A DNA stretch of 64,000 bases from Thalassia testudinum (lineage: Eukaryota > Streptophyta > Magnoliopsida > Alismatales > Hydrocharitaceae), in the NCBI GenBank assembly GCA_037157565.1, contig JAZHRO010000073.1:15568501-15632500 (forward strand), read 5' to 3'. Of this stretch, positions 5,984-59,200 are shown piece by piece; within the stretch, counting starts at the first letter, position 1; each line of letters starts with the position of its first letter. The translations under genes and the position numbers were made by a program. The notes under the pieces are model-generated. The model saw nothing but the letters and a program-made list of their open reading frames with translations, did no database searches and had not been told where the DNA came from.

Positions 5984-6147
5984 GCAGCCAGAGAGGGAGA
6001 GTCCCGCAAAGACCCCTACATGGTAGAGCAACCCACGAGTTACAGGGTTTCCCCCACCCGACCTCTCTTGTCATTGAGATTCCAGGTAGACCAGAATGGG
6101 GACCTTGACCTCTTAAGTCTACCTTTTTTAATTAAGATCAAGGTGCT
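5984..6147 (-). mobile_element. element F (Athila-like), left internal fragment
   Basis: On the minus strand this matches the leader of A1 (9855-10000) and A2 (37203-37350), including the near-invariant block ending CTCCCTCTCTGGCTGC. It is the far end of what survives of F; gag-pol and the 3' LTR are missing. It continues at 21798 after the E insertion. Confidence 0.85.
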
Positions 6148-6152
6148 TAGGG
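6148..6152. repeat. target-site duplication of E (TAGGG), left
   Basis: TAGGG immediately before the LTR; matches TAGGG at 21793-21797. Confidence 0.9.
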
Positions 6153-6405
6153 TGTAGATTTTCCCTACCAGGAGGGGGTGACGTAATAAAATGCGAAAAT
6201 AAATATAAACAATATCACAGAATAAACAACCACACAAATACACAAAGATTTTTAGGTGGAAACCCAAACCGGGCGAAAACCACCACCTAACCCTCTCAAG
6301 TTAGGATTTTCCGATCAACCTAGTTGATCAAATCCACTAACCGAATCACTTTAAAACGAGGGTGATTCAACCTCAGTACAACCACGCTACAAGTACGAGG
6401 GTAGC
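6153..6405 (-). repeat. 3' LTR of E, distal piece
   Basis: Aligns with 20075-20325. It is interrupted by A1 and resumes at 16526. The last five bases, GTAGC, double as the A1 target duplication. Confidence 0.92.
6401..6405. repeat. target-site duplication of A1 (GTAGC), left
   Basis: GTAGC before the LTR, repeated at 16521-16525. The uninterrupted target reads GGGTAGCGTTCC at 20322-20333 in the other E LTR, which proves the insertion. Confidence 0.97.
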
Positions 6406-6422
6406 TGATGAGAACCTCATCA
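6406..6422 (+). other. LTR-terminal palindrome of A1
   Basis: TGATGAG, loop AAC, CTCATCA: a perfect 7-bp inverted repeat that starts at the first LTR base. Repeated at 13719. Related palindromes begin the LTRs of A2, B2 and F. Confidence 0.8.
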
Positions 6423-7330
6423 TGAGCCATAACTAGCTCATTTTGACCCAATACAAAGGATAAAAGCTCCTACATATCTCAAGGAAAGGCTTAACTCAGA
6501 GAATTCTGAGTTTGAGAAGAAAACCAGTCATAAGGGGTAAAAGTGCAATTTTACCAGTATAAACTGCATGCAGGGTAATTCAGGGACCAAACACAGGTCA
6601 AAACAACTTAATAAGAATAAAAGTGGGATGAAATGATCTAGCAAGGGCTACAGCACTTCCAAGGAACCAAATGATAATCTGTAACCCTAAAACAACCCAC
6701 TTCAATTCACAAGGTTCGAGGCAAAGTAAAAATAGAATAAACCCTCTAAAATTCATAGAAAAATAATCTCTAGGGTTTAGAACCTTCAATTTGGCCTTTA
6801 AAACCCATTTTGACCTACATTGAGAACCATGCCCAATTAATAACTTAATTTGGGTTTTTGCGCAAATTGACCGGTCAAAAAAGGTTTAATATGAAAATAA
6901 AATTCACCATCAGATTCCTTAGGTCCTAATTAGTCATGTATAAAAACTTGAGCCTAAGAAGAAACCTCCTTGACCGACTTCACACTTTGGTCCTCATATA
7001 TTTACTCTTTGGCCCTCAACTTTTGAACCCTCGCATTTTGGCCCCTAACTCTCCTTCGTTCTTTGCAATCAGGTCCCTCCTGCAAAACCCTGCCAGCACC
7101 ATGCTCCGGCGACCTTGCGCGGAGCATGGCGCCGCGCAGGGTGAGGTGGGGGACCTGGAAAGTAAACCGGGGGTGCCCTGCGTCGTCAGCCGTCGCAGGA
7201 GCACCCCCCTGGTCATTGTAGCTCACCATACCGGCCGTGCGAACGCACGGACGGTATGGGTTCATGTTCCGACCATTCTCCGGCGAGGGAGACACGTCGT
7301 CTCCCTCCGCCTTCCTCCCTGTTTCATCCC

Positions 7331-7338
7331 TATAAATA
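7331..7338 (+). promoter_or_regulatory. TATA box in the A1 5' LTR
   Basis: CTATAAATACCCCC 925 bases into the LTR, in a GC-rich setting. Transcription would start about 30 bases downstream. Confidence 0.75.
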
Positions 7339-8564
7339 CCCCCCGCTGCTCCACCGACCAGGGCAGCCTGGATCTGACGGAGAAAACCCCCAACTTTCCT
7401 CTCTTCTCACTCCGGCAGACGCCCACCAGCTCCGGCGGTTCTTCCTCCTCCTCCTCTTCGCTCTGCCGCAATACCAGCAGCAGAGACTTCTTCCCCTGCT
7501 CTTCCCGCGTCGCGCAATACCGGCGCGCGCTGCCTCTGCCCCGTCGTCACCGCCGTCCTCCCCCCACTGGGCATCGTCTTCTCCGGCGACAGTCGATACG
7601 ACTGTCGCCCTGTTCCTCCCCCTTCGTCCCTGCAAGTAAGCTAGAGTTACTCCCCTTCTCCTCATCTTTCTTTCCCCGCTTTCAATTTAGTCAATTAAGC
7701 CCTCTACCGACCCTGTTCACCCTCACCCTCTTCGCCTCCGACCACCCTCCGGCGAGCCGCTCCCATCACCTCAGCGACCCACACGGCTCGCCGACCACCG
7801 CAGAACCTCCGCCTCCTCACCCTGATCCTCTTCCGCCCCTCCACTTCCCACCAAACACCCTCTGCAGATCCACCGAACACACCCACTTCTTCGCTCACAG
7901 TTTGACCTAGGACGACCTGTTGGCTCCATCACGCCCCCTGCAGACCCCCTGACCACCTTCGCCGTGCCACGGCGAAGGTCCCCCGCCTGTCTGATTTGGC
8001 CGAGAGGCCGTTCTTCTGTGACCAGGTGACTCGCCCGCCGTCGCCATTACTGCGCAGGCAGAGCTGCTTCACCTGCAGGTGCAGGCACGCCTTCGCCCAG
8101 GTTTGACTCCCAGGTTGCGCAGGGACTCTCCGCGAAACGTCCCAGGTTCACAGATGGGGCGAAGGCCGCGCGGGAAGCCACGATCGCCCACTGCTCCATC
8201 CGCGACGCGCGCTCAATTGGGGTGGGACATTTAGTCCCACCTCGGAACTTCTCGGAGGCGCGCGGACGCATAAAGGCAAAAAGTGCCTTATGCTGTCTGC
8301 CTCCTGACCACGGGGTGAGGTCCCTCTCACCCGACCCGGCCTCGTCCGTGACCACACTCCGCGGACCTGGCCCGACCCGATTAGACCGACCTGCACTCCT
8401 CGCCCACCACCGCACGCCGGTGGGCCTGGACCCGGGCCTGACCCGAACCCGATTACCCGGTAGCTCTGGGAGAGCTGTCCCAAGAGTGGTTTCAGAGAGA
8501 AAGAGAGACGCGGGGGGGGGGAGGGTAGAGTAGGTTTTGCCTCTTGACGAAAAACTCTGAAGTG

Positions 8565-9010
8565 TGCAAGCCAAAGAAGAAGAAGAAGACCCGCGGAAGA
8601 AGTGCAGGCGAAGAAGAAGGAGCTGCACTGTAGCAACTGCTCGGTTAAGTCGTCGAAGCACCGGGTCAGACGACGGAAAGTCAGCAGCCAGAGCAACACA
8701 GAAGGCAGGCTGAAGAAGAAGGAAGAGCAACGGCCAAAGCAGAAGAAGAAGGAAGGAAGACTTAGTAGCTGAAGGCAGAAGCTCTGCAGCCATAAAAAAG
8801 AGAGGTCACCACGATTGCAGAAGAAGAAGAAGAGAGGTCAAGGCAGAAAACCAAAGAAGAAGAAGAACAAGGAGCTCTGAAGAAAGAAAAACATCACCAA
8901 CGCAGGAACAGCAGGAAGAAGAAGAAGAGCATCACCATTGCAGAAGAAGATTATCACCATAGCAGAAACCAAGGAAGAAGAAGAAGGAGATCTGAAGAAA
9001 GAGAAAGAAA
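8565..9010 (+). repeat. GAA-rich purine stretch in the A1 LTR
   Basis: Many (GAA)2-5 runs on the plus strand between the GC-rich part and the end of the LTR. Copy lengths differ between the two LTRs (slippage). Matching stretches exist in A2. Confidence 0.85.
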
Positions 9011-9214
9011 GAAGAACATCACAACAAATTCTTTCCCTCTCTCTTTATTTTGTAAAAGAAACATGTATATCTCTAGAATACGACTTGCTCCCTGAGTTCG
9101 ACCTCGGGAACTCTTTCATTTTCCGAGTAAAAAATTTATATTTGAAATGTTGGCAATAACCGGCCTTACTACAACGTTATAACAAAACCCGGTGAAACCG
9201 GACGTTTCTCATTT

Positions 9215-9232
9215 TGGCGTCGTTGCCGGGGA
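9215..9232 (+). other. primer-binding site of A1 (tRNA-Asp)
   Basis: TGGCGTCGTTGCCGGGGA, three bases after the LTR. It complements the 3' end of plant tRNA-Asp with one mismatch, as expected for Athila. Confidence 0.9.
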
Positions 9233-9349
9233 GCAACGGCTATTCTAGAGGTAAACATTCCTGTATTTTTTTTTTATTATTTCTGATAATCTCCTCTCTT
9301 TTGTGCAGCTACAGGAACTCAAGAAGACAAGCAACCACACCAAAGACAG

Positions 9350-10204
9350 GTAAATTTTTCCTCTCACTATTAACCCCTAAGCTCTAAAGAGGAAGAAAAG
9401 AAAAGAACAAGCAATATAGGGCTAACCTGTCTTCCATATTTAGTAACCATAAAAGTTGCATGTTTTCAACTCATTATTTCTGCACACTATTAAGGGTATT
9501 TAAGGGCTAACACATTCTTGCTTGAGCCCTAATTACCCAACAAAGAATTAACTGGACCAAGTAGAGCCAACCTAGGATCCAACACTAGGGATTTAGAGAC
9601 ACACTCCTTAAGCAAGAATTGAGAAAACCAAATGAAGTGTGCCCAAGCCCTTGTCTGAAAATACCTATTCAAAGAAAATCTAAAACAATTGGCTCTCTAA
9701 ACACTTGAACCCTAAAAGACAGGACCTAAAAGCTCTCAAAGAAAACAAGAGGTAAAGTTGACCCCTTGGGTCAACCAACCTTAAATTAGGTCACTCTTTG
9801 CACTTAAAAGACTAAAGTTCAAGTGAAAACCTTAAGCACCCTGATCTTAAAATTGGTAGACTTAAGAGGTCAAGATCCCCATTCTGGTCTACTTGGAACC
9901 GCAGTGACAAGAGAGGTCGGGTGGGGGAAACCCTGTAACCCGTGGGGACGCTCTACCGTGTAGGGGTCTTCGCGGGACTCTCCCTCTCTGGCTGCCCAGG
10001 TAATTCTCAGGTGGACGATCTTTCTGATCAAGGGGTCCATCTGCCCCGAACCTCCATAGTCACCCAACAATTTTTGGGTGTCTTGATTGGGTCCAGCACC
10101 TGCTTATCTCATCCAGCCCTTCAGTATTTTTCAGGAGGTCCTTGAAACCTCCTATAGAAATTCACTCTCCCCGAGGCTAAGCCTCGGCTCCTTTGTTTTT
10201 GCAG
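9350..10204 (+). other. candidate leader intron of A1
   Basis: Donor ACAG/GTAAAT at 9350 and acceptor TTTGTTTTTGCAG ending at 10204, 107 bases before the ORF start. Donor and acceptor recur at matching places in B2 (42074, 43110); A2, B1 and D keep one or the other. A further acceptor-like TCTTTTGTGCAG ends at 9308 and would leave a 41-base exon. Splicing is inferred, not shown. Confidence 0.5.
9855..10014 (+). other. near-invariant leader block, A1 copy
   Basis: From GGTAGACTTAAGAGGTCAAG to TAATTCTCAGGTGGA. Much better conserved with A2 (37203-37362) and F (5984-6126, minus strand) than the leader around it. It contains GGTCGGGTGGGGGAAACCCT and CTCTACCGTGTAGGGGTC. It probably acts in the unspliced RNA, for example in packaging; that is inference. 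Confidence 0.7.
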
Positions 10205-10311
10205 AAATCATTCACATAGCCCCTCTTTCCTCTGATTCTGAACAAAATCCCCTTCTTCCATCTTGATTCAAACTTTGATTCTATCTCTTGATTCCACCAC
10301 CTGATCCAATT

Positions 10312-12174
10312 ATGCAGCCTAATTACCTAGCAAGACTACCATTCAAGAAACCTGAATATTGGAGATCTATGAAAGATAAAATGATCGAGGATGCCATAAA
10401 ATTCTATGAAAAAGAAGAAAAAACCTCAACACCAATAGGAGATATTCAGGTTGATGTCCCAACAACCACATCCTTCATCATAAACTGTGCCCAAATTCTA
10501 TTGACTGGAATTTCAAAAGGATCAACTCGAGATATGCTCATGACAGGATACATTGAGATGGAAAAATTACACCAATCTGAATACCTTCAATGCTTGACAA
10601 ATCCTGTACTTTGGGAACAACACCAAGATGCCCTTATAAAACGGGTAGAAATGATGAAATCAGTAGAACAAATTATCAACCAGAAATACCCGTATATACC
10701 AGAAACAGAGGATGAACCATCTTGGAACAGTATTAAGGAACCATTCAGTTTCCCAGATCCCGGGATTGAGGCACAAAGTGGTTGTAAAATCCCAACCCAG
10801 ATAGAAGACAATGTTGCATTAGGTTGGGATATTGCAGGAGAACACAATGCTGAGCCAACCCTAGGCCATGAATCACCAAGCTTAGAACTCCAAGACTCCT
10901 GCAATGACAAGATTAGAATTGAACCTCTCGAGGGTATAAATTCCACCCCTTGTTTTGATAAGGTGACCCTCGAAGGTTATTCGGACTTAGGTTCTAATAA
11001 TTCTACCCACACCCTAAGCCTAGAACCTAGATCTGAAACTTATTGGGAAGATTATGAGGCCCTTTATGAGAAAGATCAAATTTTTACAGAATATGATTCC
11101 GAGCCTCTATTTAATGAATATCCCTCTCCAACATCCTCAGGAAATCTGATCGATTTTTCAGGAAACATGCCAATTTATGATACAGAAACTGAGGAGTTGG
11201 ATGAGCAAGGTTTTAATGGGCTCTATCCTACCAGCTTCGAGCTTGAACAGAACACCTTTTTGAGCCCAGAATTGACATATAGGCTAGAACCCAGTCAGGC
11301 TGCTGATTCCACATCTGATGATTTCTGCTGTGGTGGAATTCATGATCGTTTTCGCCAACTCTCCGACAATTTCAGATCTGACTATAATTGCGGAGAGATT
11401 CCCCTTCCTGAACACGCCAGGCCTATCTACGACCTCAGTTCACATGACTCTGACTCTGACTCTGACTCTGAGGTCCTGATTCCCGAGATCACCGATAACA
11501 CAGAATCATTCCTTTTCGATCCTCAGGAACCAAAAACAGAAAATGCCAAGAGTGATTGCAACCAAGAATCCAAATTTTTTCTCGAATCCGATTTCTTTCA
11601 TCCTACAAACACTCTTCCGGCATTTGATAGTTACCCAGAGGACTCTCTACAGAAAACCACCTATCATCTGTTTCTAGAAGAGCCCTCGTACACAATGGCC
11701 ACCTCAGCCGCACACACAGAACGGATCAAAACCTCTTCCCAACCTCAACCTGCAACCGGACTCAATTTCTATTCTGATTCACCTCTCACCGAGCCGATTG
11801 CATTTCCACATCGGGTTTCGAACATTGATCAGACTACATACCATGCTCTATCATTCTCTGATCACCCCTGTAGGGTTTCCGCGTCATTCATTGACTATTC
11901 TACAGGTCCCTACTCTGACCAGGCTGATTCGACTCAGCCAAACCCTGCGTTTACACTTCCACATCTATCTGAGCTTCATAGTTTATGGTGGGTTCCACAC
12001 CTTTTTATCCACATCTATCAACCCACCAGATTGATTGGGTTTGGGCTGCATCATCAGCCTGTTGATCTAAACAAGCACCTGGTTGGACCAACCAGGCTCT
12101 TAATCAAGGTGCTTGTCTTACAAAACTCTGCTGATTTGACCATCCCCTCTCCATCGCATTTCCCGCTTGGCTGA
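10312..12174 (+). CDS. uncharacterised acidic protein of non-autonomous element A1 (620 aa)
   Basis: An intact frame that begins where A2 begins gag and ends where A2 ends pol. The in-frame ATG at 10312 (MQPNYLARLPFKKPEYW) is preferred; the frame is open further up but has no earlier ATG before the inferred acceptor. The N-terminal ~140 residues look helical and charged (KMIEDAIKFYEKEE; IEMEKLHQSEY). The middle is long, acidic and rich in S, D, E, P and T, with a DSDSDSDSE run near residue 385. The C-terminal ~60 residues switch to basic and hydrophobic (RLIGFGLHHQPVDLNKHLVG). There is no zinc knuckle, protease DSG/DTG, RT or integrase motif. I recognise no family. It could be a diverged gag-like or accessory protein. 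The open frame over 1.8 kb and young LTRs suggest it is, or recently was, translated. Confidence 0.75.
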   Translation: MQPNYLARLPFKKPEYWRSMKDKMIEDAIKFYEKEEKTSTPIGDIQVDVPTTTSFIINCAQILLTGISKGSTRDMLMTGYIEMEKLHQSEYLQCLTNPVLWEQHQDALIKRVEMMKSVEQIINQKYPYIPETEDEPSWNSIKEPFSFPDPGIEAQSGCKIPTQIEDNVALGWDIAGEHNAEPTLGHESPSLELQDSCNDKIRIEPLEGINSTPCFDKVTLEGYSDLGSNNSTHTLSLEPRSETYWEDYEALYEKDQIFTEYDSEPLFNEYPSPTSSGNLIDFSGNMPIYDTETEELDEQGFNGLYPTSFELEQNTFLSPELTYRLEPSQAADSTSDDFCCGGIHDRFRQLSDNFRSDYNCGEIPLPEHARPIYDLSSHDSDSDSDSEVLIPEITDNTESFLFDPQEPKTENAKSDCNQESKFFLESDFFHPTNTLPAFDSYPEDSLQKTTYHLFLEEPSYTMATSAAHTERIKTSSQPQPATGLNFYSDSPLTEPIAFPHRVSNIDQTTYHALSFSDHPCRVSASFIDYSTGPYSDQADSTQPNPAFTLPHLSELHSLWWVPHLFIHIYQPTRLIGFGLHHQPVDLNKHLVGPTRLLIKVLVLQNSADLTIPSPSHFPLG

Positions 12175-12175
12175 A

Positions 12176-12210
12176 GGCATCAAATTTAGCGCTCAACGGG
12201 AGGCAGCCCG
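12176..12210 (+). other. post-ORF conserved block of A1
   Basis: GGCATCAAATTTAGCGCTCA then ACGGGAGGCAGCCC, one base after the stop. Same block and place as in A2 and C. Confidence 0.7.
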
Positions 12211-12402
12211 TCATTCTCTTTGAAAACCTGAAACTTCTTCTGACAGCTTTTTGCACTTGAAGTTCACACTGTAGGACAGGCGACCCCACCTCAGGTGCTT
12301 GCATCTGAGATTAAAAATCGTCCGCAACAGTCACCCCAACCCATTCACCCATCAAAACAGCTATCCTAATGTATGAACTTAGTTGAATAAAAACCCCTAG
12401 GT

Positions 12403-12440
12403 TACAATGAGGACATTGCAAATCTTAGGCATGGGGGGGT
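12403..12440 (+). other. internal second polypurine tract (A1)
   Basis: ACAATGAGGACATTGCA, then TAGGCATGGGGGGGT. The core TAGGCATGGGGG equals that of the real PPT 1.28 kb downstream. A second start point for plus-strand synthesis is a reasonable guess. Confidence 0.65.
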
Positions 12441-13137
12441 ATGAAAGTACAAAAACTTGTAAGAAAAGGTTTCAAACAAAAAATTCACATATGCCAAAAA
12501 CACCATAAAAATTAAAAAAAAAAAAAAAAAAAATTTCGAAAAAGAATAAGAGGAAAAGAGGAGAAGAAAATTTTTTGAAGGAGAAAAGAAACAAAATGAA
12601 AAAGGAGCACAAAATTATGAGAAAAAGTGATAGTCATTAGTAAGGAACTAAGGAATTAACCTAAGTTCTAGACCTCATTCAAGAAAATAACTGAAAAGTG
12701 CACAATGAGATTAGTAAGAATGCAAACCTTAGGCATTCTTGAATAGACTCTTAGTACCCATTAAGATCTGGACACTCCTCAAGAGGTTGAGGAAAATGAA
12801 AAGCTGAAGTATTAGGTCTAAGGCTTAGGGAGTATTCGGCCTCGTTAACTAATTTTTGGTTTACGGGACTCAGTAACCTAAGCACCCTAATCTCACACAC
12901 AGCCTGGTTCAGTAAGCGTAAAAATCAGAATCACGCAGAAGCGTCGCAAAAATCTGAAAAGAACACCTAGAATAGGAGCGGCCGATCAACACAAGTTGAT
13001 TTGGACGAGTTCCCAGCGCGGAGAGGCGGGAAATCCCCTCGAAGATGCGTAACAAAATATCATCTCCTCGGTGCTTGTCTCTTAGGATATTTACATATCC
13101 TACGGGGGGCATGTAAGCACTCTGCTGGTTCAGATTC

Positions 13138-13289
13138 CATGGATGGCATTATCTCGAAGTGTCAATTGCCAGGGTCTGGATTCGGCCACGGAATACCATG
13201 GATGGGATTATCTCGAAATCTCAATAGCCAGGGTTCCGGGGGTTGCCATGGGCGGTGCTATCTCGAAGCATCGATCGCCAGGAACCCTT
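13138..13289 (+). repeat. three-unit tandem repeat in the A1 3' UTR
   Basis: Units start at CCATGG 13138, 13196 and 13245. Each runs through TATCTCGAA to a GCCAGG near its end. Three units at nearly the same spacing occur in A2 (55942, 56002, 56051). Confidence 0.85.
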
Positions 13290-13680
13290 GAGGATTGATG
13301 ATGGGAGCAAGGAATCTGATACAGACCGTGTTGAAAAGCCAATCCTAGGCTAGAACTAAAAAGAAAAAGAGAGAGAAAACTCTCCAAACAGAAAAACTTT
13401 CTATCTCTCTCTTACAAAACGCACTGCGAACTGAGCCAGGGCTAAAATCATTTTAAGCACGGGTACTTTAACCACGAAGTCCAATAAACCTTAGGTTAGT
13501 TCTTGTGGGCCTTAAAAACCTTTGCTAAAAGACTGAGGCTAAGGCTAGACAGATTTGGATCTTGATTGGTACTAGAGTACCTTTTAGGCCTATGATCAGC
13601 ATTCTAACCTAATCTATGAAGGCACTTATCTAAAACTATTGAAAACTTCATGGTCTAGAACAAGGGTTGAAACCTTAAGT

Positions 13681-13718
13681 TTTTGCTAAGGGACTAGCAA
13701 AAGCTAGGCATGGGGGTA
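13681..13718 (+). other. stem-loop plus polypurine tract of A1
   Basis: TTTTGCTA, loop AGGGAC, TAGCAAAA, then GCTAGGCATGGGGGTA directly before the 3' LTR. Confidence 0.88.
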
Positions 13719-16520
13719 TGATGAGAACCTCATCATGAGCCATAACTAGCTCATTTTGACCCAATACAAAGGATAAAAGCTCCTACATATCTCAAGGAAA
13801 GGCTTAACTCAGAGAATTCTGAGTTTGAGAAGAAAACCAGTCATAAGGGGTAAAAGTGCAATTTTACCAGTATAAACTGCATGCAGGGTAATTCAGGGAC
13901 CAAACACAGGTCAAAACAGCTTAATAAGAATAAAAGTGGGATGAAATGATCTAGCAAGGGCTACAGCACTTCCAAGGAACCAAATGATAATCTGTAACCC
14001 TAAAACAACCCACTTCAATTCACAAGGTTCGAGGCAAAGTAAAAATAGAATAAACCCTCTAAAATTCATAGAAAAATAATCTCTAGGGTTTAGAACCTTC
14101 AATTTGGCCTTTAGAACCCATTTTGACCTACATTGAGAACCATGCCCAATTAATAACTTAATTTGGGTTTTTGCGCAAATTGATCGGTCAAAAAAGGTTT
14201 AATATGAAAATAAAATTCACCATCAGATTCCTTAGGTCCTAATTAGTCATGTATAAAAACTTGAGCCTAAGAAGAAACCTCCTTGACCGACTTCACACTT
14301 TGGTCCTCATATATTTACTCTTTGGCCCTCAACTTTTGAACCCTCGCATTTTGGCCCCTAACTCTCCTTCGTTCTTTGCAATCAGGTCCCTCCTGCAAAA
14401 CCCTGCCAGCACCATGCTCCGGCGACCTTGCGCGGAGCATGGCGCCGCGCAGGGTGAGGTGGGGGACCTGGAAAGTAAACCGGGGGTGCCCTGCGTCGTC
14501 AGCCGTCGCAGGAGCACCCCCCTGGTCATTGTAGCTCATCATACCGGCCGTGCGAACGCACGGACGGTATGGGTTCATGTTCCGACCATTCTCCGGCGAG
14601 GGAGACACGTCGTCTCCCTCCGCCTTCCTCCCTGTTTCATCCCTATAAATACCCCCCGCTGCTCCACCGACCAGGGCAGCCTGGATCTGACGGAGAAAAC
14701 CCCCAACTTTCCTCTCTTCTCACTCCGGTAGACGCCCACCAGCTCCGGCGGTTCTTCCTCCTCCTCCTCTTCGCTCTGCCGCAATACCAGCAGCAGAGAC
14801 TTCTTCCCTGCTCTTCCCGCGTCGCGCAATACCGGCGCGCGCTGCCTCTGCCCCGTCGTCACCGCCGTCCTCCCCCCACTGGGCATCGTCTTCTCCGGCG
14901 ACAGTCGATACGACTGTCGCCCTGTTCCTCCCCCTTCGTCCCTGCAAGTAAGCTAGAGTTACTCCCCTTCTCCTCATCTTTCTTTCCCCGCTTTCAATTT
15001 AGTCAATTAAGCCCTCTACCGACCCTGTTCACCCTCACCCTCTTCGCCTCCGACCACCCTCCGGCGAGCCGCTCCCATCACCTCAGCGACCCACACGGCT
15101 CGCCGACCACCACAGAACCTCCGCCTCCTCACCCTGATCCTCTTCCGCCCCTCCACTTCCCACCAAACACCCTCTGCAGATCCACCGAACACACCCACTT
15201 CTTCGCTCACAGTTTGACCTAGGACGACCTGTTGGCTCCATCACGCCCCCTGCAGACCCCCTGACCACCTTCGCCGTGCCACGGCGAAGGTCCCCCGCCT
15301 GTCTGATTTGGCCGAGAGGCCGTTCTTCTGTGACCAGGTGACTCGCCCGCCGTCGCCATTACTGCGCAGGCAGAGCTGCTTCACCTGCAGGTGCAGGCAC
15401 GCCTTCGCCCAGGTTTGACTCCCAGGTTGCGCAGGGACTCTCCGCGAAACGTCCCAGGTTCACAGATGGGGCGAAGGCCGCGCGGGAAGCCACGATCGCC
15501 CACTGCTCCATCCGCGACGCGCGCTCAATTGGGGTGGGACATTTAGTCCCACCTCGGAACTTCTCGGAGGCGCGCGGACGCATAAAGGCAAAAAGTGCCT
15601 TATGCTGTCTGCCTCCTGACCACGGGGTGAGGTCCCTCTCACCCGACCCGGCCTCGTCCGTGACCACGCTCCGCGGACCTGGCCCGACCCGATTAGACCG
15701 ACCTGCACTCCTCGCCCACCACCGCACGCCGGTGGGCCTGGACCCGGGCCTGACCCGAACCCGATTACCCGGTAGCTCTGGGAGAGCTGTCCCAAGAGTG
15801 GTTTCAGAGAGAAAGAGAGACGCGGGGGGGGGGAGGGTAGAGTAGGTTTTGCCTCTTGACGAAAAACTCTGAAGTGTGCAGGCCAAAGAAGAAGAAGAAG
15901 ACCCGCGGAAGAAGTGCAGGCGAAGAAGAAGGAGCTGCACTGTAGCAACTGCTCGGTTAAGTCGTCGAAGCACCGGGTCAGACGACGGAAAGTCAGCAGC
16001 CAGAGCAACACAGAAGGCAGGCTGAAGAAGAAGGAAGAGCAACGGCCAAAGCAGAAGAAGAAGGAAGGAAGACTTAGTAGCTGAAGGCAGAAGCTCTGCA
16101 GCCATAAAAAAGAGAGGTCACCACGATTGCAGAAGAAGAAGAAGAGAGGTCAAGGCAGAAAACCAAAGAAGAAGAAGAACAAGGAGCTCTGAAGAAAGAA
16201 AAACATCACCAACGCAGGAACAGCAGGAAGAAGAAGAAGAGCATCACCATTGCAGAAGAAGATTATCACCATAGCAGAAACCAAGGAAGAAGAAGGAGAT
16301 CTGAAGAAAGAGAAAGAAAGAAGAACATCACAACAAATTCTTTCCCTCTCTCTTTATTTTGTAAAAGAAACATGTATATCTCTAGAATACGACTTGCTCC
16401 CTGAGTTCGACCTCGGGAACTCTTTCATTTTCCGAGTAAAAAATTTATATTTGAAATGTTGGCAATAACCGGCCTTACTACAACGTTATAACAAAACCCG
16501 GTGAAACCGGACGTTTCTCA
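13719..16520 (+). repeat. 3' LTR of A1
   Basis: Nearly identical to 6406-9211. Differences seen include one base at 13918, one base missing in a C run near 14808 and one GAA unit fewer near 16290. TATA box at 14644-14651. Frames inside it duplicate those of the 5' LTR and are not counted as genes. Confidence 0.97.
14644..14651 (+). promoter_or_regulatory. TATA box in the A1 3' LTR
   Basis: TATAAATA at the position matching 7331. Here it would drive read-out into E. Confidence 0.7.
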
Positions 16521-16525
16521 GTAGC
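16521..16525. repeat. target-site duplication of A1 (GTAGC), right
   Basis: Exact copy of 6401-6405. Confidence 0.97.
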
Positions 16526-18013
16526 GTTCCTCAACCCCTTCTCTCCACGAGAAGGATTTTGTCCCACGAAGGAGACGGGAATTCGCAAAGCGAATACCCA
16601 ACTAAATAACAAAGATAAAATAAACAACAAGTCCTATAGAGCCAACAAAGTAATTATGAACCTAGCTTCTATAGGAATTAGGAAACTCCCCTTTTCAAGG
16701 AGTGCGTCGAGTTGATGACGCGGTGCGTGAGCCACGCGACGGCGCAACTTCGCTCTCGTGAACAACGGCGGGAGAGTGGGTGCGCAAAGCTTGATGCTCT
16801 CTAGAGAATGGAACTAGAGCTTGGAGAGCAAGGGCTTCTCTTGGACACAAAAGAGTGGAACTAAGTTGCTTAGGTGTGTCTCTTGTTTCTCTTAGTGTGT
16901 CTAGGTGTCTTTAGGTGTGTATTGGTGTGTAAAGGCTTCCTCTATTTATAGAGGCCTTAGGAAGGCTTTAGAAGGCTTAGGAAAGGTTCTATAGCCGTTG
17001 GGTGCAAAGCCCAAGAGAATTAGCCCGAAATCAGGAATAATCATTGCTCTGACAGGCTTATCAGACATCTAATTCTGGCATCAGATGTCTGGAAGTTCAC
17101 TTTAAGACGTCTGATTTCAAGGTCAGACGTCTGATTTTGGGCGGGTCTCTTCCTGACTTGGATCAGATCTAAACAGGATTTTTGTGCAAGTCCATCAGAC
17201 GACATGTAGGACGTCTGGTACTATGTCTGGACGTCTGGAAACCTACTTTTATTGTGGGAATGGATTTTCCAAACGTTGCAACAGCTAGAAAATCTCTGAG
17301 AAGAGATTTTGGGTCAGTCGAGGTAAAACGATCATTTATCAGACGTCTGGAAAGGCATAAGGACGTCTGATAAGGCTCTAACGGTTGTACTCTTGAGTGT
17401 TTGTTAAGCCAGCCAACGGTCCACTAATTGGACATCTGGCAAACCCATCAGACATCTCCTAAGACGTCTGGTTTAAGGTCTGGACATCTGATTTCATCAG
17501 ACAAAACTACCAATGTCCAGCCTAACAGTTACCAGACGTCTGAAACAACAGTCAGACGTCTTAAAATACTTTATTAGACGTCTGATTTGGGAATTAGACA
17601 TCTGGAAATGATGTTTGAGCCCTATATTGGTTTCTAAGTATTCTACAGAAAACCTAAGTATCCTAGGGTTGTGTAGGTGTTCGTAGGACTACTGTTAGGG
17701 TACTTTGAGGCTCTTTAACATAATATTCTAAGGAAAATAAAAAGAGAAAGAAAATAAAGACAAGAGATACAAGAAAGGATTAAAAAGAATCTATCCTATT
17801 CTTCTTGTCTTCTATCTTCAATCTGTCGCTCCACACGAACCTCCTCTATTTTCCGTCAAGCTCCTCCAATCCATCCTGGATGCGAGCTCGAACTCCGTTT
17901 AAGCACGTCTACATTTGCATTTGACTTGAAATCTAGGACTCAAATTGTAAATGTTAAATAACACGTGTTTTGTTATCATCAAAATAAATGATCGTGGTGC
18001 TCTAGCACCAACA
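16526..18013 (-). repeat. 3' LTR of E, main piece
   Basis: Aligns with 20326-21792. On the minus strand the LTR begins TGTTGGTGCTAGAGCACC at 18013. Minus-strand TATA (CTATAAATAG) at 16942-16951. Contains many GACGTC or decayed GACATC palindromes (17050-17620). Confidence 0.94.
16942..16951 (-). promoter_or_regulatory. TATA box, E 3' LTR
   Basis: CTATAAATAG on the minus strand; its twin is at 20722-20731 in the other LTR. Confidence 0.7.
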
Positions 18014-18245
18014 ATCTCCCCCTTTTTGACATTATCAAAAAGGTTTGATTGATTTTAGATTTCATATAACTCCCCCTTAAAACATGCTCTTCTATGAATT
18101 TATTTTAACAAAGGTGATATTCTCCCCCTTTTTGTAACAACAAGATAGCTATTATTTTTCTCCCCCTTACTAAAGGAAATTTAGCTAACTTGCATCTCCC
18201 CCTTAAAAATTGACAATTAGCTCATCATTTTTTAACTCCCCCTAT
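18014..18245 (-). other. multiple polypurine tracts of E
   Basis: The proper PPT (AAAAAGGGGGAGATT on the minus strand) touches the LTR at 18013. Five more GGGGGAG tracts follow within 230 bases, near 18069, 18123, 18160, 18197 and 18236. Such PPT arrays are a described trait of Sireviruses. Confidence 0.85.
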
Positions 18246-18283
18246 CTAAATGCTTATAAAAAGATAGGGTTAAGAATTTTACC

Positions 18284-20020: not shown

Positions 20021-20061
20021 GATCTTCTTGCCGGGTGTTACTCCGATCTCACAAGAACCTA

Positions 20062-20072
20062 CTCTGATACCA
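20062..20072 (-). other. primer-binding site of E (tRNA-iMet)
   Basis: TGGTATCAGAG on the minus strand, two bases inside the 5' LTR; standard for plant copia elements. Confidence 0.93.
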
Positions 20073-20721
20073 ATTGAAAGTTTTTCGGCCCAACCAGGAG
20101 GGGGTGACGTAATAATTGCAGAAATAAAATAAACAATCTCACAAAAAATCAATCGCACAAGTACACAATTATTTTTAGGTGGAAACCCAAACCGGGTGAA
20201 AACCACCACCTAACCCTCTCGAGTTAGGATTTTCCGATGAACCTAGTTGATCAAATACACTAACCGAATCACTTTAAAACGAGGGTGATTCAACCTCAGT
20301 ACAACCACGCTACAAGTACGAGGGTAGCGTTCCTCAACCCCTTCTCTCCATGAGAAGGATTTTGTCCCACAAAGGAGACGGGAATTCGCAAAGCGAATAC
20401 CCAACTAAATAACAAAGATAAAATAAACAAGTCCTATAGAGCCAACAAAGTAATTATGAACCTAGCTTCTATAGGAATTAGGAAACTCCCCTTTTCAAGG
20501 AGTGCGTCGAGTTGATGACGCGGTGCGTGTGCCACGCGACGGCGCAACTTCGCTCTCGTGAACAACGGCGGGAGAGCGGGTGCGCAAAGCTTGATGCTCT
20601 CTAGAGAATGGAACTTGAGCTTGGAGAGCAAGAGCTAGCTAGGACACAAGAGAGTGGAACTATGTTGCTTAAGTGTGTCTTGTGTTTCTCTTGATGTGTA
20701 TTGGTGTGTAAAGGCTCCCCT

Positions 20722-20731
20722 CTATTTATAG
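20722..20731 (-). promoter_or_regulatory. TATA box, E 5' LTR
   Basis: CTATAAATAG on the minus strand, upstream of the E gag. Confidence 0.75.
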
Positions 20732-20859
20732 AGGCCTTAGGAAGGCTTTAGAAGGCTTAGGAAAGGTTCTATAGCCGTTGGGTGCAAAGCCCAAGAGAAT
20801 TAGCCTGAAATCAGGAACAATCATTACTCTGACAAGCTTATCAGACATCTAATTCTGGC

Positions 20860-21792: not shown

Positions 21793-21797
21793 TAGGG
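21793..21797. repeat. target-site duplication of E (TAGGG), right
   Basis: Exact copy of 6148-6152. Confidence 0.9.
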
Positions 21798-22439
21798 TTC
21801 CACTTGAACTTTAGGCCTTTTGAGTGTAAATAAAGTGACTTAATTTTAAGGTTGGTTGACCCAAAGGATCAACTTCACCTCTTGTTCCTTTGAGAGCTTT
21901 TAGGTCCTTTCTTTTAGGGTTCAAATGGATTAAGAGCCTGATTTGCTTAGGGTTTCTCTTGTATAGATCTTTTCAAATAAGGCTTAGGCACACCCCTTTT
22001 TGAAATTTTTGCTTCTTTGTTTAAGAGAAGATGTGTCTCTAAAAACCCTAGCTTTGCAATCCTTAGGTTGGCTCTAGTTGGTCCAATTTAGTTGCCTCAA
22101 AAATTGTTATCTAGGGCTCAATCAAGAAGGTTTCAGTCCTAGTTACCTTAATCGGATGTGCAACTCAAAATGTGTTGAAATGAAAATCAGGCAACTTTGA
22201 TTAATTACTAAGTATGGAAACAGGTAGCCCTAGATTGATTTTTTCTTTATTTTTTTCCTTTTCAGACTTTGAGGGGATTAAGAGAGAGGGCTAATGAAAG
22301 TTACCTGTTCCTTGGTGTGGTTGATGTGTGGCTGCTCTTCTTTTCTCTACTTTCCCTGAGACAAGCACAACAAAAGAGAGAAATCAAGTCAGTATTGAAT
22401 CAGAAGTTGTGATCAAAAGCTTCAAAAAATGCCTGTTGC
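21798..22439 (-). mobile_element. element F, leader region
   Basis: Minus-strand Athila leader between primer site and the E insertion. It aligns with the A1 and A2 leaders (for example the stretch at 22040-22090 against A1 9541-9590). No gag survives in F. Confidence 0.85.
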
Positions 22440-22457
22440 TCCTCGGCAACGGCGCCA
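22440..22457 (-). other. primer-binding site of F (tRNA-Asp)
   Basis: TGGCGCCGTTGCCGAGGA on the minus strand, one mismatch to the tRNA-Asp complement. Confidence 0.9.
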
Positions 22458-36678: not shown

Positions 36679-37565
36679 GTAAATGCTAACCACTCTCTCT
36701 TAAGCCCCTCATCCTAAAATGGTTAAAAAGGATAAAATCAATTAGGGGACTTACTTTCCATTCTTAGATAATTCATCAAGTTGCCTGATTTGATTTCAAC
36801 AACAAAACCTGATTTGTGCACCCACTTAAGGTAACTAGGGCTATCACATTCTTGTTTGAGCCTTAGATACCACATTTGGCAAAGTAAATTGGACCAAAAC
36901 AAGAGCCAAGTAAGGATTCCAAGTTATGGTTTTAGAGACACACTTACATAATCAAGAACTGATCTTTCCCAAACATTGTGTGCCTAAGCCTTGATTGAAC
37001 TGATCTATTCAAGCAAACCCTAAAAATTAGGCTCTTAATCTCACTTAAATCTTAAAAGAGGGACCTAAACATCTCAAAGGACAAATAGGTGAAGTTGACC
37101 CACCTTGGTGGGTCAACCAATCTTTAAATTAGGTCACTTTGGTATTCAATACATCCTAAAAGTTCAAGTGAAATCCTAAGCACCCTTGCCCTTAATAAAA
37201 TCGGTAGACTTAAGAGGTCAAGTCCCCATTCTGGTCTACCTGGAACACCAGTGACAAGAGAGGTCGGGTGGGGGAAACCCTGTAACCTGTGGGGGTGCTC
37301 TACCGTGTAGGGGTCATTGCGAGACTCTCCCTCTCTGGCTGCCCAGGTAATTCTCAGGTGGATGGTTTTTTCACTAAGAGGTATCATCCACCCTGAACCT
37401 CTATAGTCATCCAAAATTTTTGGGTGTCTTGATTGGGTCCACCACACTCTATTCTCGTCCAGTCCATCAGTTCATGTTTGGTAGGAGGTCCTTAAGACCA
37501 TCCTTGAGGCCTCCTTTCGTTATTCACTCCCACAAGGCCAGGCCTCGACTTCCGTGTTTGTGCAA
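36679..37565 (+). other. candidate leader intron of A2 (acceptor decayed)
   Basis: Donor TAG/GTAAAT at 36679 matches A1. At the acceptor place A2 has GTGTTTGTGCAAC, where the final AG is now AA. Another acceptor-like TTATTTCAG ends at 36624. Confidence 0.4.
37203..37362 (+). other. near-invariant leader block, A2 copy
   Basis: Matches A1 9855-10014 almost base for base, including GACAAGAGAGGTCGGGTGGG and GACTCTCCCTCTCTGGCTGC, although the rest of A2 is well diverged. Confidence 0.7.
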
Positions 37566-37628
37566 CAACCCTATCACATACACATCTCTTCTGATTCATC
37601 TGAACCTAATTCTCCTTCATCCATCATC

Positions 37629-54880: not shown

Positions 54881-54906
54881 CCCTGAGCTCATTGCGCCTG
54901 GCCGAT

Positions 54907-54945
54907 GGCATAAAACATAGCGCTTAACAGGAGGCAACCCATCAT
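54907..54945 (+). other. post-ORF conserved block of A2
   Basis: GGCATAAAACATAGCGCTTA then ACAGGAGGCAACCC; the A1 copy is at 12176. Confidence 0.7.
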
Positions 54946-55146
54946 TTTGAAAAACCCGAAACCTTTCTTGACACATTCCTATACTGAACTAATATTACAC
55001 TTTAGGGTTCATCCATTAGAACAGCCGACTCCACCTCTAGTACCTGTAGCCGAGGTTGAAATCGTCTGCAACAGTCATCTCGACCCATTCACCCACCCAA
55101 CACCTGTTCTAATGAATGATCTAAGCTAAACTCGAACTCACCTAAT

Positions 55147-55184
55147 TTACAATAAGGACATTGCAAATCGTAGGCATGGGGTGG
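55147..55184 (+). other. internal second polypurine tract (A2)
   Basis: ACAATAAGGACATTGCA, then TAGGCATGGGGTGGT, 1.35 kb before the true PPT. Confidence 0.65.
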
Positions 55185-55941
55185 TATTAAAGTGCAAAAC
55201 TCTGCGAAAATCACTTCACAAGAAAGGATTTCATCAAAAAAAATCACATACCCCAAAAATACCAAAAAAAATAAAAAATTCTTGAAAAGAACAAAAATAT
55301 GAGAGGAGAGGAAATTTTGATGACATATCAAATTTTGAGGAGAAAAAGGGGAAGAGTTAAAAATGTCAAAAAAGGAGCACAAGTTGAAAAGAAAAGAAAA
55401 AGAGGTAGTCATTATTAAGAAATTGAGGAATTGACTTAGTTCTAGACCATACCAAAAGAGAAAGAAAAGACAAAAAGTGCTAATGAAACAAAGAAGAGAT
55501 TAGTAGGAATGCTGATTTTAGGCCTTTGGGCTATAAACCTAGGCTTAGAAATTCAAGTACCCGCTACGATCTGGATAGTCCCCAACAGGTTGGGGAAAAT
55601 GAGAAGCTTAAGTATTAGGTCTAAGGCTTAGGGAGTATTCGGCCTCGTTAACTGACCTCTGGTGTGTGAGACTCGGTAACCTAAGCACCCCAATCCACAC
55701 ACAGTCTAGTTCAGTGTGCTTAAGTATCAAAATCACGCAAATGCATTTAAATTATTCTGAAAAAGTCACCTAGATTAGGAGCAGTTGATCAACACAAGTT
55801 GATTTGGATGAGTTCCCGGTGTAGAGAGGTAGGAAATTCCCCTTGAAGATGCGCAATAACATATCGTCTCCTCAGTGCTTGTCTCCTAGGATATCTACAT
55901 ATCTTACCAGGGGCATGTTAGCACCCTATGCTGGTTCAAAT

Positions 55942-56093
55942 GCCATGGGCGGCATTATCTCGAAATGTCGATTGCCAGAGTCTAAATTTAGCTACAGAAC
56001 TCCATGGACGAGATTATCTCGAAATCTCGAAAGCCAGGGTTCTGGGGGCTGCCATGGGCGATGTTATCTAGAAGCATCGATTGCCAGGGACCC
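55942..56093 (+). repeat. three-unit tandem repeat in the A2 3' UTR
   Basis: CCATGG at 55942, 56002 and 56051, each followed by TTATCTCGAA or TTATCTAGAA and a GCCAG. Confidence 0.85.
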
Positions 56094-56494
56094 TACGAGG
56101 ATTGATGATGGGGACTAGGAATCTGATACAGAACGTGTTGTAAAGCCAATCCGAAGCTAGAAATGAAAAGAAAATAGAGAGAAAACTCTCCAAAAAAAAA
56201 GAAAAATTCCTCTATCTCTCTCTACCAAAAACGCACTGCAAACTGAATCGAGGGTAAAACATGCTACAAGCACGGGTGCTTTAACCACGGAGTTCAACAA
56301 ACCTTAGGATAGTTCTTGTGGGCCTTAGAAACCTTCCCGACAGACAGAGGCTAGAACTAGTCAGGTTTGAATATTGGTTAGTACTTAAGTACCTCTAGGC
56401 CTACTATTGGCATTCTGACCTAATCTACAAAAGAAAGCACACATCAAAGATTTTAAAGATTTTATGGTCTAGAATCAAAGTTAATACCTTGAAA

Positions 56495-56532
56495 TTTTGT
56501 TAAGGGACTAGCAAAAACTAGGCATGGGGGTA
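56495..56532 (+). other. stem-loop plus polypurine tract of A2
   Basis: TTTTGTTA, loop AGGGAC, TAGCAAAA (one G-T pair), then ACTAGGCATGGGGGTA. Confidence 0.87.
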
Positions 56533-59200
56533 TGATGGGAACACCATCATGAACCATAACTAGCTCATTTTGACCCAATTGACTCAATAAATGCTCCTAC
56601 ATAACCACCAGAGAATCATAACTCACTGTATAACCATTCTGAGAGAAAAATAAGCAACTAGAGTTAAAACTACAATTTTACTAGCTTATCATGAATGCAG
56701 TACAACCATGGGTTTTCTAAAGGGCTGAATAAAGGCCAAATGGTCTAATAAGATAATAAGTGTGTTAAATCAGATAGAAAATGGTTTGCGTGTGTTCTGA
56801 GAATTAAATGACTTTTGAAACCTTAAAAACAAACTCAATTAACCAAGGTTCTGGTTAGGATAAAATTCACTTAAACCCTCTAAAAATCATAGAAAAATAT
56901 TATCTAGGGTTTAGTACCTTCAATTTAGCCATCAGAACCCATCTTGACCTAAAATGGAATCTCAGATAGATATTTGCCCTAATTTAGATTTTTGCATAAA
57001 TTACCCAATCAATTTGATCAAAACCAAAATCCAACTTCACCATTGGATTCCTTAGGTCCAAATTAGGTTTGTACCAAAACTTGGACCCAAGATGAACTTG
57101 TCTTGACCTAGTTTGCAAAATGGTCCTATCTTATTACATTTATACCCCCAACTTTCAAAAATCCTTACTTTCAGCCCCCTAACTTATTCGTCATCTTCAC
57201 AGTTAGGTCCCTCTGCCATTATCGCGGAGAAAACCTATTCCGGCAACCTTTGACAGGAGATTTCTCCTTGATTGCTTGGAGAATCTCTTCCAAAATTGGA
57301 AGGGAGATTCTTTGAGAAATCCTCTCCAATTTGAACCTGTCAAGATGCTCTGAATATTTCCTAATCTCTCATGTGAACGCATGAAAGATTTAGGTCGCTT
57401 GAAACTACAAATCCGGCAACTTTCCAAGCTTGGGAAGCTTGCTTCCTAAGCTTTAACCGCCCCCTAGAGCCCTTTATAAGAACCCTCAGAGCTCCCTGAA
57501 TTCCTGATGCTCGAAATTGGTCATGAAATCCCCACAATTCTTCTCTCCCTCTCACAATCGAAGGCCCCTCGACGTCTAACGATTCCCTCTGCCCTTCCTC
57601 ATCATCCGATTACAATACCAATGGTGGATTCCTCTTCCCCACCTCCATCCGCATCTCGCCGTACCAATAGACGGCCTTTCCTCCTTCGTCCTCGCCGTTC
57701 CTACCTCATTGAAGCCGCCTTCTTCTCCAAAGTCGGCCACACCACATCCAACGCCATCACTGCCCCAATTCGTCCATCAACCTCCTAGCTAAGTCCCTTG
57801 TCCCCTCTACTGTATTTCCGCACTTACCTCACTGCAAATCAACCACCGATGCTTCTCCGTAACCCCATCTCTTCCATCTCCGACCACCTCATCTGGAGAG
57901 ACCATCCTACCTCCACAGCCCACACCAACGCAAAACCTTCGCCACACCTCATTAATCATTTTCCCTCTCTTTATTCACTTCTCCATCCACTCATATGCAC
58001 CCCGAAACACACCCACTCACATGCACACAGCCTGACCTAGCCATGCACTCACAGCCACTATCGCTCCACGCCACCACCCCCATCATGTTCACTGTGCTCC
58101 AGCGGTACTCCCTCAACGTTCTGACATGACCGAGAGGCCATTTTACTAATTTCAGGTGTATGCTCTATCCTCCATTGACGAGCAAGCTTCGAGCCTGCTT
58201 GAAGGTCACTCTAGGCCTTGCTACGCCTAGGTTGAAGCCCCAAGTTGTGCGGAAGTGCCTCGAGCACAAGTCCAGGCCCTCAATTGAAGATGCAAGCCTC
58301 GCTAGTTGAGGCAATTGCGAAGGAGATCCCTGCTGCAGAAGTGCGAAGGAGGGGGGCGTGGATAGTCCCACATCAAAGAATGTTGAAGCCGTGCGCCCGC
58401 ATAAATTGATTTTGTGACAGCAGTTGTTAGCCTCAGTGCATGGGGTAAGGTCCCTCTCACCCGCTCACCCGACCTCATCCGCGACACCTACTCATGGACT
58501 TGGTTGACCTGATAACCTGCCTGACCTACACTCCTCACTCACCACCACACGCTGGTGAACCTAGACTCAGGTACATGCTTGACCCGATAACCTGGATACC
58601 CTGTGGCTCTGGGAGAGCGAATCCTAAGAGAGAAAAAGAGAGGAGAGTTGCGCAGTTAGGGGGAGGGTTTTGCTACAGGGACCTTCGACTGACACTTAGT
58701 CAGATTCTAAAGAGGAAAGACAGAGAAGGAGGAAGAGAAGAAGAGAAAGATTGCAGAGCTAAAGGCAAAAGAAGAAAAGAAGTGAGGGCCTGAGCTGAAG
58801 AGAAGAAGAAGAGAAGGACATAGCTGAAGCAGAGAAAGGAAGAATCAGACAAAGCGGAGAAATAGAAGAAGAAGAAAGGAAGAATCAGAGAAGAAAAGAA
58901 GACAATTAGACGACAGAACCTAGCTCTCATTTCATACATATACATTGAGTTCTTTAGTTGATATTATAGGAGTATTTGGTGATCTAAATCACCATTTTAC
59001 TCCCATCTTTTTGCACATTGATACTGATATTATTGCAAATTCTTTTAGTTTGAATTGTGATCTTGGTTTCTAAATACCACATTTCTTCCTGTGTTTGACC
59101 TCGGAATCTTTTTGAGTAATAAAAATTGTATTTGTTTTCAAAGTAATTTTGACTATATTACAATGCTTCATTTTTAAACTCGATCTCACCACAATAAACA
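56533..59200 (+). repeat. 3' LTR of A2
   Basis: TGATGGGAACACCATCATGA to CACAATAAACA. Copy of 33807-36520 with clear divergence. TATA at 57473-57480, GAA-rich 58720-58905. Confidence 0.94.
57473..57480 (+). promoter_or_regulatory. TATA box, A2 3' LTR
   Basis: TTTATAAG, matching 34753. Confidence 0.6.

What the first reader, a model, noticed from the sequence alone, without database searches (positions are those of the whole stretch)
10312..12174. A1 replaces all of gag-pol with one intact unknown ORF
Seen: a 621-codon frame (with stop) with no Gag, protease, RT or integrase motif sits exactly between the gag-start position and the post-pol block shared with A2. Known: non-autonomous LTR elements usually lose coding capacity (LARD, TRIM) or keep gag (TR-GAG). 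Inference: a conserved, translated, non-gag protein in a recently mobile element would be a different class, with a protein that may help the element recruit another element's particles or act as a regulator.
Basis: partly seen in the sequence, partly recalled or inferred. Interest (0 to 1): 0.88.

Follow-up and report, generated by a model that had tools for sequence, protein, structure and literature searches.

The report
Retrotransposon family carrying one unknown gene
A very common plant retrotransposon that cannot move by itself has swapped its normal genes for one gene of unknown function, and most sampled recent copies keep that gene readable, so elements filed as 'non-coding' may still make a protein.

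Summary
A1 (6406-16520) is a young LTR element: 2.8-kb LTRs with 8 substitutions, a 5-bp target duplication. Between the gag-start position and a post-pol block shared with Athila-type elements it carries one 620-aa frame without a recognisable domain. It is no one-off: a probe from the frame's start matches 10,469 places in the 4.26-Gb genome (control 0). In a sample not picked on the frame 16 of 20 copies are open; in more divergent subfamilies 6 of 20. Variants in 4 or more of 47 copies include no stop (about 9 expected), and shared indels keep frame in 8 of 9 cases (2 of 11 next door). The leader has 2 ATGs where 10.3 are expected. So the frame was kept open and is probably read from gag's old start region. 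Amino-acid constraint is weak (omega 0.7-0.8; local gag 0.36-0.50). PBS and LTR ends match gag-encoding Athila-type families, the likely helpers. Wheat RLG_Sabrina NA variants, with gag-pro replaced by unrelated small genes, are a published precedent: this is a new variant of a known kind, not a new class. What the protein does is unresolved.

The parts
6401..6405 (.). target-site duplication, left (GTAGC)
   Evidence: the same repeat without A1 reads ...GGGTAGCGTTCC... within 20310-20345
6406..9211 (+). 5' LTR of A1, 2806 bp, TG...CA
9215..9232 (+). primer binding site, one mismatch from TGGCGCCGTTGCCGGGGA (tRNA-Asp type; the 18-mer is recalled); exact in A1-family copies L002 and L004
9212..10311 (+). 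leader, strongly depleted of ATG (2 against 10.3 expected); 9476-10262 is 76% identical to the A2 leader
10312..12174 (+). 620-aa ORF in place of gag-pol; acidic (pI 4.5, net charge -60); helices predicted at about residues 14-125 with low confidence, little predicted structure beyond
12071..12116 (+). hairpin inside the 3' end of the ORF (CAAGCACCTGGTTGG...GGTGCTTG)
   Evidence: the region hardly varies, so there is no covariation evidence
12175..13709 (+). non-coding post-pol block, 73% identical to A2
13710..13718 (+). polypurine tract ATGGGGGTA, same as in A2
13719..16520 (+). 3' LTR of A1, 2802 bp
16521..16525 (.). target-site duplication, right (GTAGC)
20089..20600 (+). paralogous repeat without the insertion (empty-site control)
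36812..37625 (+). A2 leader (autonomous-type element), homologous to A1 up to the gag start
54895..57213 (+). A2 post-pol block and start of LTR, homologous to A1
21794..22323 (-). A3 leader; relatives of A3 in the genome run into an Athila-type gag

Best explanation
A1 belongs to a high-copy non-autonomous family of Athila-type Ty3/gypsy retrotransposons. It keeps LTRs, tRNA primer site, leader, post-pol block and polypurine tract and is copied in trans by autonomous relatives of the A2/A3 type. All of gag-pol has been replaced, from gag's start to the end of pol, by one unrelated frame of about 1.86 kb. Shown: structure, recency of A1, copy number, open frame in most sampled near copies, in-frame indels, no common stops, ATG-poor leader. 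Inferred: the frame is translated by scanning from gag's old start region, and RNAs with an open frame keep being copied in preference. Most likely mechanism (inferred, moderate): the family makes an acidic, largely disordered protein with a short helical N-terminal part that acts as an accessory to the helper's particles or life cycle. Its sequence is loosely constrained, so either a small part of it or its mere translation matters.
For: 10,469 genome matches to the ORF's N-terminal motif, control 0. Open from start codon to the normal end in 16 of 20 copies ranked on adjacent non-coding DNA, two of the 16 being tandem neighbours. Distinct ORF indels among 27 copies: 6 of 7 in frame against 5 of 22 next door; shared indels: ORF 8 of 9 in frame among 47 copies, post-pol 2 of 11 among 27. 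Variants in 4 or more of 47 copies: 142 N, 66 S, 0 stops, about 9 expected, P about 1e-4. Leader ATGs 2 against 10.3, 0 of 400 shuffles as low, post-pol not depleted (24 against 21.0); seven near-identical copies (L002-L008) also have 2. PBS and LTR start shared with A2/A3. Those families encode gag. Recombination among lineages: four-gamete pairs 8 of 76 when near, 90 of 309 when far.
Against: Amino-acid constraint is weak: omega 0.78 (37 copies, p = 0.03), 0.79 (47 copies, p = 0.03) and 0.82, p = 0.10, for commoner variants. Rarer variants in the 47 copies give 0.70, lower than shared ones, although singletons among 27 copies gave 1.12. Shared substitutions are no more conservative than neutral ones. 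Residues 381-560 look neutral. In the divergent subfamilies only 6 of 20 sampled copies are open from the start codon; 10 of 15 distinct stop positions fall in the first 140 codons, which does not fit a specially guarded N-terminus. Five stops recur in 2-3 copies each (codons 46, 73, 101, 447, 542), in pairs that do not form one group, so possibly repeated C-to-T. One 1-nt insertion near the stop is shared by 5 copies. No transcript or peptide was available. Models have pLDDT 33.5 and 46.1. The specific autonomous partner was not identified.
Confidence: 0.7

Rival explanations
1. Only openness of the frame is selected: translation across the former gag-pol slot protects the RNA (for example from nonsense-mediated decay of a transcript with a very long 3' untranslated part) or keeps it competent for packaging, and the protein itself is incidental.
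For: Frame keeping with weak amino-acid constraint; no preference for conservative substitutions among shared variants; the frame fills the slot to the end of pol.
Against: Residues 1-140 show somewhat lower omega (0.54-0.62, p = 0.06-0.08); wholly non-coding LARD and TRIM classes exist without any frame (PMC6022998 passages).
Confidence: 0.27
2. The protein is a nuclear regulator: its acidic, aromatic-rich disordered middle acts as a transcription activation or anti-silencing domain for the element's own LTR.
For: 39 of 582 windows of 39 aa, 37 of them starting at residues 231-290, have net charge -9 or lower with 7 or more W/F/Y/L (the thresholds are recalled from activation-domain work); pI 4.5, net charge -60; charge-changing substitutions are rarer than neutral among singletons (p = 0.01) and marginally among shared variants (p = 0.08).
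Against: No DNA-binding domain found; no background set of proteins was scored; changes of W/F/Y/L are not rarer than neutral.
Confidence: 0.2
3. The ORF is dead weight: one open master spawned most copies so recently that decay has not shown.
For: A1 itself is about 0.11 My old at 1.3e-8 per site; omega is near 0.8; 14 of 20 sampled divergent copies are broken.
Against: Copies open from the start codon exist at dS 0.085-0.104 from A1 (L066, L068, L069); common variants lack stops; in-frame indel bias; the post-pol block has accumulated 17 frameshift-sized indels against 1 in the ORF among the same 27 copies.
Confidence: 0.12
4. It is a very divergent gag or env-like protein of the Athila lineage that sequence methods miss.
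For: It sits in gag's slot; low-confidence helices at residues 14-125; related non-autonomous elements often keep gag (PMC2410132, PMC5738225).
Against: 0 of 11 members match PF03732 or PF03078 at E <= 1 while local gags match PF03732 in 4 of 6; profile comparison with gag gave probability 0.2%, though both profiles are shallow; no zinc knuckle seen by eye.
Confidence: 0.12

Closest known systems
RLG_Sabrina NA2-NA8 of wheat (Athila clade, PMC9744471)
   Same: Non-autonomous, high copy, PBS of tRNA-Asp type, gag-pro region replaced by unrelated sequence encoding proteins, several without homologues.
   Different: There the proteins are called short and were set aside in the sections read; here one 620-aa frame replaces all of gag-pol, in an element of 10.1 kb with 2.8-kb LTRs, and frame keeping was tested. 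Sequence homology to Sabrina could not be tested.
Non-autonomous Athila families of Arabidopsis (PMC2410132)
   Same: Whole families without pol that keep open frames and depend on other Athila families.
   Different: Those frames are gag and env with omega about 0.2-0.4; here no gag or env match was found and omega is about 0.7-0.8.
RLG_Quinta with RLG_Cereba (PMC11302176)
   Same: Non-autonomous partner that keeps PBS and LTR ends of its helper and encodes a part of unknown function (DUF1).
   Different: Quinta keeps gag and is centromere-specific; that its lineage is not Athila is recalled.
LARD / TRIM / TR-GAG / BARE-2 classes (PMC6022998)
   Same: LTR elements lacking parts of gag-pol; by the rule quoted there A1, without a known domain, would be called LARD.
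   Different: LARD is defined by having no coding domain, TR-GAG keeps gag; that BARE-2 keeps pol is recalled.
Additional ORFs in plant LTR elements (PMC7264820)
   Same: Unknown proteins carried in most copies of a family.
   Different: Those lie beside gag-pol, most often between pol and the 3' LTR.

Membership tests
Athila-type Ty3/gypsy, non-autonomous member | PBS and LTR start shared with autonomous relatives | tested here: met
   PBS exact in A1-family L002 and L004 and in A3-type L026, 0-3 mismatches in 16 of 16 partner-type loci, not found in L046 whose locus lacks that region; first 46 LTR bases of A1 agree with A2 at 42 and with A3 at 40
Athila-type Ty3/gypsy, non-autonomous member | PPT shared with autonomous relatives | tested here: inconclusive
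   GGCATGGGGGTA identical in A2 itself and L035, but the expression used matched only 2 of 8 A2-type loci; 3 of 3 A1-type loci matched
Athila-type Ty3/gypsy, non-autonomous member | leader and 3' block homologous to elements encoding a Ty3/gypsy gag | tested here: met
Athila-type Ty3/gypsy, non-autonomous member | RT phylogeny within the Athila clade | not tested
   A1 has no RT; the Athila label for A2/A3 rests on recalled features of their gag and RT
LARD | no coding capacity | tested here: not met
   620-aa frame kept open
TR-GAG | gag domain present | tested here: not met
   control
RLG_Sabrina_NA-like elements | gag region replaced by an unrelated coding segment in a high-copy non-autonomous Athila-clade family | tested here: met
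   set against the description
RLG_Sabrina_NA-like elements | sequence homology to a Sabrina variant | not testable with these tools
   no plant TE library on hand
Transduced host gene (Bs1-like) | present in one or few copies | tested here: not met
   10,469 matches
Transduced host gene (Bs1-like) | match to a host gene | tested here: inconclusive
   only the 71 best genome matches are scored; the protein collection hardly covers plants: gag control gave 1 hit, ORF 0

The most novel reading that the evidence does not exclude
A previously undescribed TE-encoded accessory protein family, expressed from gag's start region, makes a gag-less and pol-less element competitive over helper elements; selection acts on keeping the frame translated rather than on a fixed protein sequence.
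Probability: 0.3. Interest if true: 0.75.

Novelty: new variant of a known kind. Interest (0 to 1): 0.52.

Why it matters
Domain-based annotation would file this family, with more than ten thousand matches to its ORF's start, as a non-coding LARD. If a maintained frame with no recognisable domain hides there, part of the 'non-coding' LTR fraction of plant genomes may make proteins that nobody has looked for. The wheat study that found similar replacement genes set them aside as too diverse; this family, with many near-identical and some divergent copies, makes the question of what such genes do directly testable.

Tried and rejected
One-off gene capture: rejected by copy number. Degenerate gag-pol read in another frame: no DNA similarity to A2's slot or to 24 partner-type loci, no protein similarity to A2's slot. 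Homologue searches in the large protein collection were empty, but the control (gag of a partner-type family) found only one protein, so this says little about plants. Structure prediction gave low confidence (pLDDT 33.5 for the whole, 46.1 for residues 1-140), so no fold search was run. Net-charge conservation looked striking at first, but two lineages drifting from one ancestor are expected to differ by zero on average, so it was dropped as evidence. PF03078 (Athila ORF-1): nothing in this genome or in the control genomes, so uninformative. Rfam: nothing above the curated cut-offs. The 22 post-pol indels used as a control include 14 in an A-rich stretch (12470-12640); of the 8 outside it 2 are multiples of three. 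One search treated L064 as intact; a recount shows a stop at its second codon, and L074 has one at its seventh, so stop-free runs of 615 aa or more (8 of 20) overstate open copies, which are 6 of 20; because of this I lowered the best explanation from 0.72 to 0.70 and raised 'dead weight' from 0.10 to 0.12. The A2 'leader' is 36780-37629, its start chosen by a chance motif; A2's PBS is at 36524. Rows dropped before counts: L058 (tandem neighbour of L055) from variant and indel counts; L073 and L077 (326 and 200 bp aligned) from the four-gamete test only. The 20 copies L041-L060 are rows 4-23 of the 40; rows 1-3 are A1 and its two nearest copies, rows 24-40 were not fetched. L061-L080 were hand-picked from the first 100 listed matches, leaving out the A1-type motif, so they are conditional on an intact 32-base motif. 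Paper searches.

Full report
What is there. A1 is a complete LTR element at 6406-16520. The two LTRs (2806 and 2802 bp) differ by 8 substitutions and 2 short gaps, the target duplication is GTAGC, and a paralogous repeat at 20089-20600 shows the site without the insertion. At 1.3e-8 substitutions per site (per year; the rate used for wheat elements in PMC9744471, passage seen) the insertion is about 0.11 My old. Between the LTRs lie a 1.1-kb leader, the 620-aa frame 10312-12174, and a 1.5-kb post-pol block. No other frame in the internal region exceeds 129 aa, and 300 base shuffles of it never gave more than 207 aa.

How it fits the neighbours. The leader (from 9476) is 76% identical to that of A2 up to 10262, which in A2 is about 5 bases before the gag start codon and in A1 is 49 bases before the ORF's ATG. 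Identity resumes (73%) at 12164, 8 bases before the ORF's stop codon, and continues through the post-pol block into the LTR. Nothing between the two breaks resembles A2's gag-pol slot, or at DNA level any of the 24 partner-type loci L017-L040. Relatives of A2 and A3 elsewhere in the genome run from the homologous leader into a gag, often with stops, recognised by PF03732 in 4 of 6 members tested. So gag-pol was replaced as a block; the leader and 3' block stayed.

Primer site, polypurine tract and LTR ends. The PBS TGGCGCCGTTGCCGGGGA (recalled as tRNA-Asp type; PMC9744471 reports a tRNA-Asp PBS for wheat Athila-clade elements, section 13 read) is exact in A1-family copies L002 and L004 and in A3-type L026, one base off in the window copy, and within 3 mismatches in 16 of 16 partner-type loci. 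The PPT GGCATGGGGGTA is identical in A1-type loci (3 of 3) and in A2 and L035; the expression used did not match the other 6 of 8 A2-type loci. The first 46 LTR bases of A1 agree with A2 at 42 and with A3 at 40. PBS and LTR ends are two of the five criteria that the wheat authors use for a helper pair; ages, sub-family structure and promoters were not tested here.

Copy number. A degenerate 32-base probe for RSMKDKMIEDA, with up to two mismatches, matches 10,469 places and its reversed control none. Protein searches score only the best 71 of more than 46,000 first-look candidates; with the A1 query 67 of 71 have no stop, with the more distant L046 query 64 of 71. Those are biased towards good copies, so a sample ranked on the adjacent non-coding block was used: of rows 4-23 of the 40, 16 of 20 are open over the full length, two of the 16 being tandem neighbours. 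A second sample of 20 from more divergent subfamilies (86-95% DNA identity; hand-picked from the motif list, 2 of them truncated) has 6 open from the start codon. Older copies are thus mostly broken, as expected for insertions that decay once they land.

Is the frame kept open while the family spreads? Among 27 copies the ORF has 7 distinct indels, 6 of them multiples of three; the post-pol block of the same copies has 22, 5 of them multiples of three (Fisher p = 0.006). Among 47 copies 8 of 9 shared ORF indels keep frame, private ones 6 of 12; in the post-pol block of 27 copies shared ones do so in 2 of 11. The ORF exception is a 1-base insertion in the last codons, shared by 5 copies. Variants found in 4 or more copies include 142 non-synonymous, 66 synonymous and no stop, where about 9 stops are expected (P about 1e-4). 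Five stops recur in 2-3 copies each, in pairs that do not form one group. Most of the post-pol control indels (14 of 22) lie in an A-rich stretch, which weakens that control; the one-third chance expectation alone gives p = 0.001 for 8 of 9.

Is the protein sequence conserved? Only weakly. A1 against ten divergent copies gives omega 0.62-0.83. Shared variants give 0.78 for 37 copies (p = 0.03), 0.79 for 47 (p = 0.03) and 0.82 for the commoner ones (p = 0.10). Rarer variants in the 47 give 0.70, singletons among 27 copies 1.12, so the neutral baseline itself is uncertain. The same measure on gag of two partner-type families gives 0.36 (8 copies) and 0.50 (7 copies), which differs from the ORF at p = 0.045 when pooled. 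Shared substitutions are no more conservative than neutral expectation; charge changes are rarer among singletons (p = 0.01) and marginally among shared variants (p = 0.08). Residues 1-140 have a lower omega (0.54-0.62, p about 0.07), residues 381-560 show no constraint; yet 10 of 15 distinct stop positions lie in the first 140 codons.

Is it likely to be translated? The leader has 2 ATGs where dinucleotide shuffles give 10.3 (0 of 400 as low), the post-pol block 24 against 21.0; seven near-identical copies (L002-L008) also have 2, and A2 36780-37629 has 3 against 11.6. This is what a scanning ribosome needs to reach 10312, and it was presumably inherited from the gag leader. No expression data were available.

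What the protein looks like. pI 4.5, net charge -60, a helical prediction for about residues 14-125, and an acidic, aromatic-rich middle without predicted structure. Model confidence is too low for a fold search. Scans of Pfam, PDB sequences and Rfam gave nothing above chance. A hairpin at 12071-12116 lies in the 3' end of the ORF; the 22 pairs of that fold are formed in 806 of 814 cells of 37 copies, but the region barely varies, so this is not covariation evidence.

Recombination. Pairs of transversion sites (45 copies) show all four combinations in 8 of 76 cases within 100 columns and in 90 of 309 beyond 800 (p = 0.0006): lineages exchange segments, as expected if RNAs of different copies are packaged together.

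Compared with what is known. PMC9744471 (sections 12 and 13 and passages read) describes wheat RLG_Sabrina variants NA2-NA8 in which gag-pro is replaced by unrelated segments encoding short proteins, four without homologues and two with folds like viral capsid-formation proteins. PMC2410132 (parts 1-2 of 6 read) shows non-autonomous Athila families with gag and env under purifying selection. PMC5738225, PMC11302176, PMC3129301, PMC11963269 and PMC6022998 were read as passages; PMC7264820 as parts 1-2 of 3. A1 is therefore a new variant of a known kind: a larger gene, replacing all of gag-pol, and here tested for frame keeping. No description of this particular protein was seen in searches, which cover open-licence papers by word only.

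Verdict. The family carries a frame in gag's slot in thousands of places, and that frame stayed open in the lineages that spread; the protein sequence is only loosely constrained and its role is open. I lean towards an accessory protein made from that frame, with selection for mere translation as the strongest rival.

Noticed in passing
G000: C4:66879969, 66887292, 66894614, 66901937; C70:60916625, 60923836, 60931069; C6:133951680, 133958992; C15:79889245, 79896531: A1-family copies occur in head-to-tail arrays with a period of 7.1-7.4 kb (one LTR plus internal region), as expected from unequal recombination between LTRs.
   Followed up: no
12071-12116: A strong hairpin lies in the 3' end of the ORF, in a stretch with few shared variants; it may be an RNA signal rather than a protein feature.
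   Followed up: partly
9212-10311 and 36780-37629: The A1 leader and the tested part of the A2 leader are strongly depleted of ATG, a sign of scanning-based translation.
   Followed up: partly
5984-6153 and 21794-25186 (minus strand): A third element, A3, appears to be split by insertions: its two leader pieces are contiguous in A1 coordinates but lie on both sides of A1 and a copia-like stretch.
   Followed up: partly
16626-21792: A copia-like element with 93-98% identical repeats and a gag-like frame with a zinc-knuckle-like motif on the minus strand (18284-20011); A1 appears to lie in sequence paralogous to 20089-20600 beside it.
   Followed up: no
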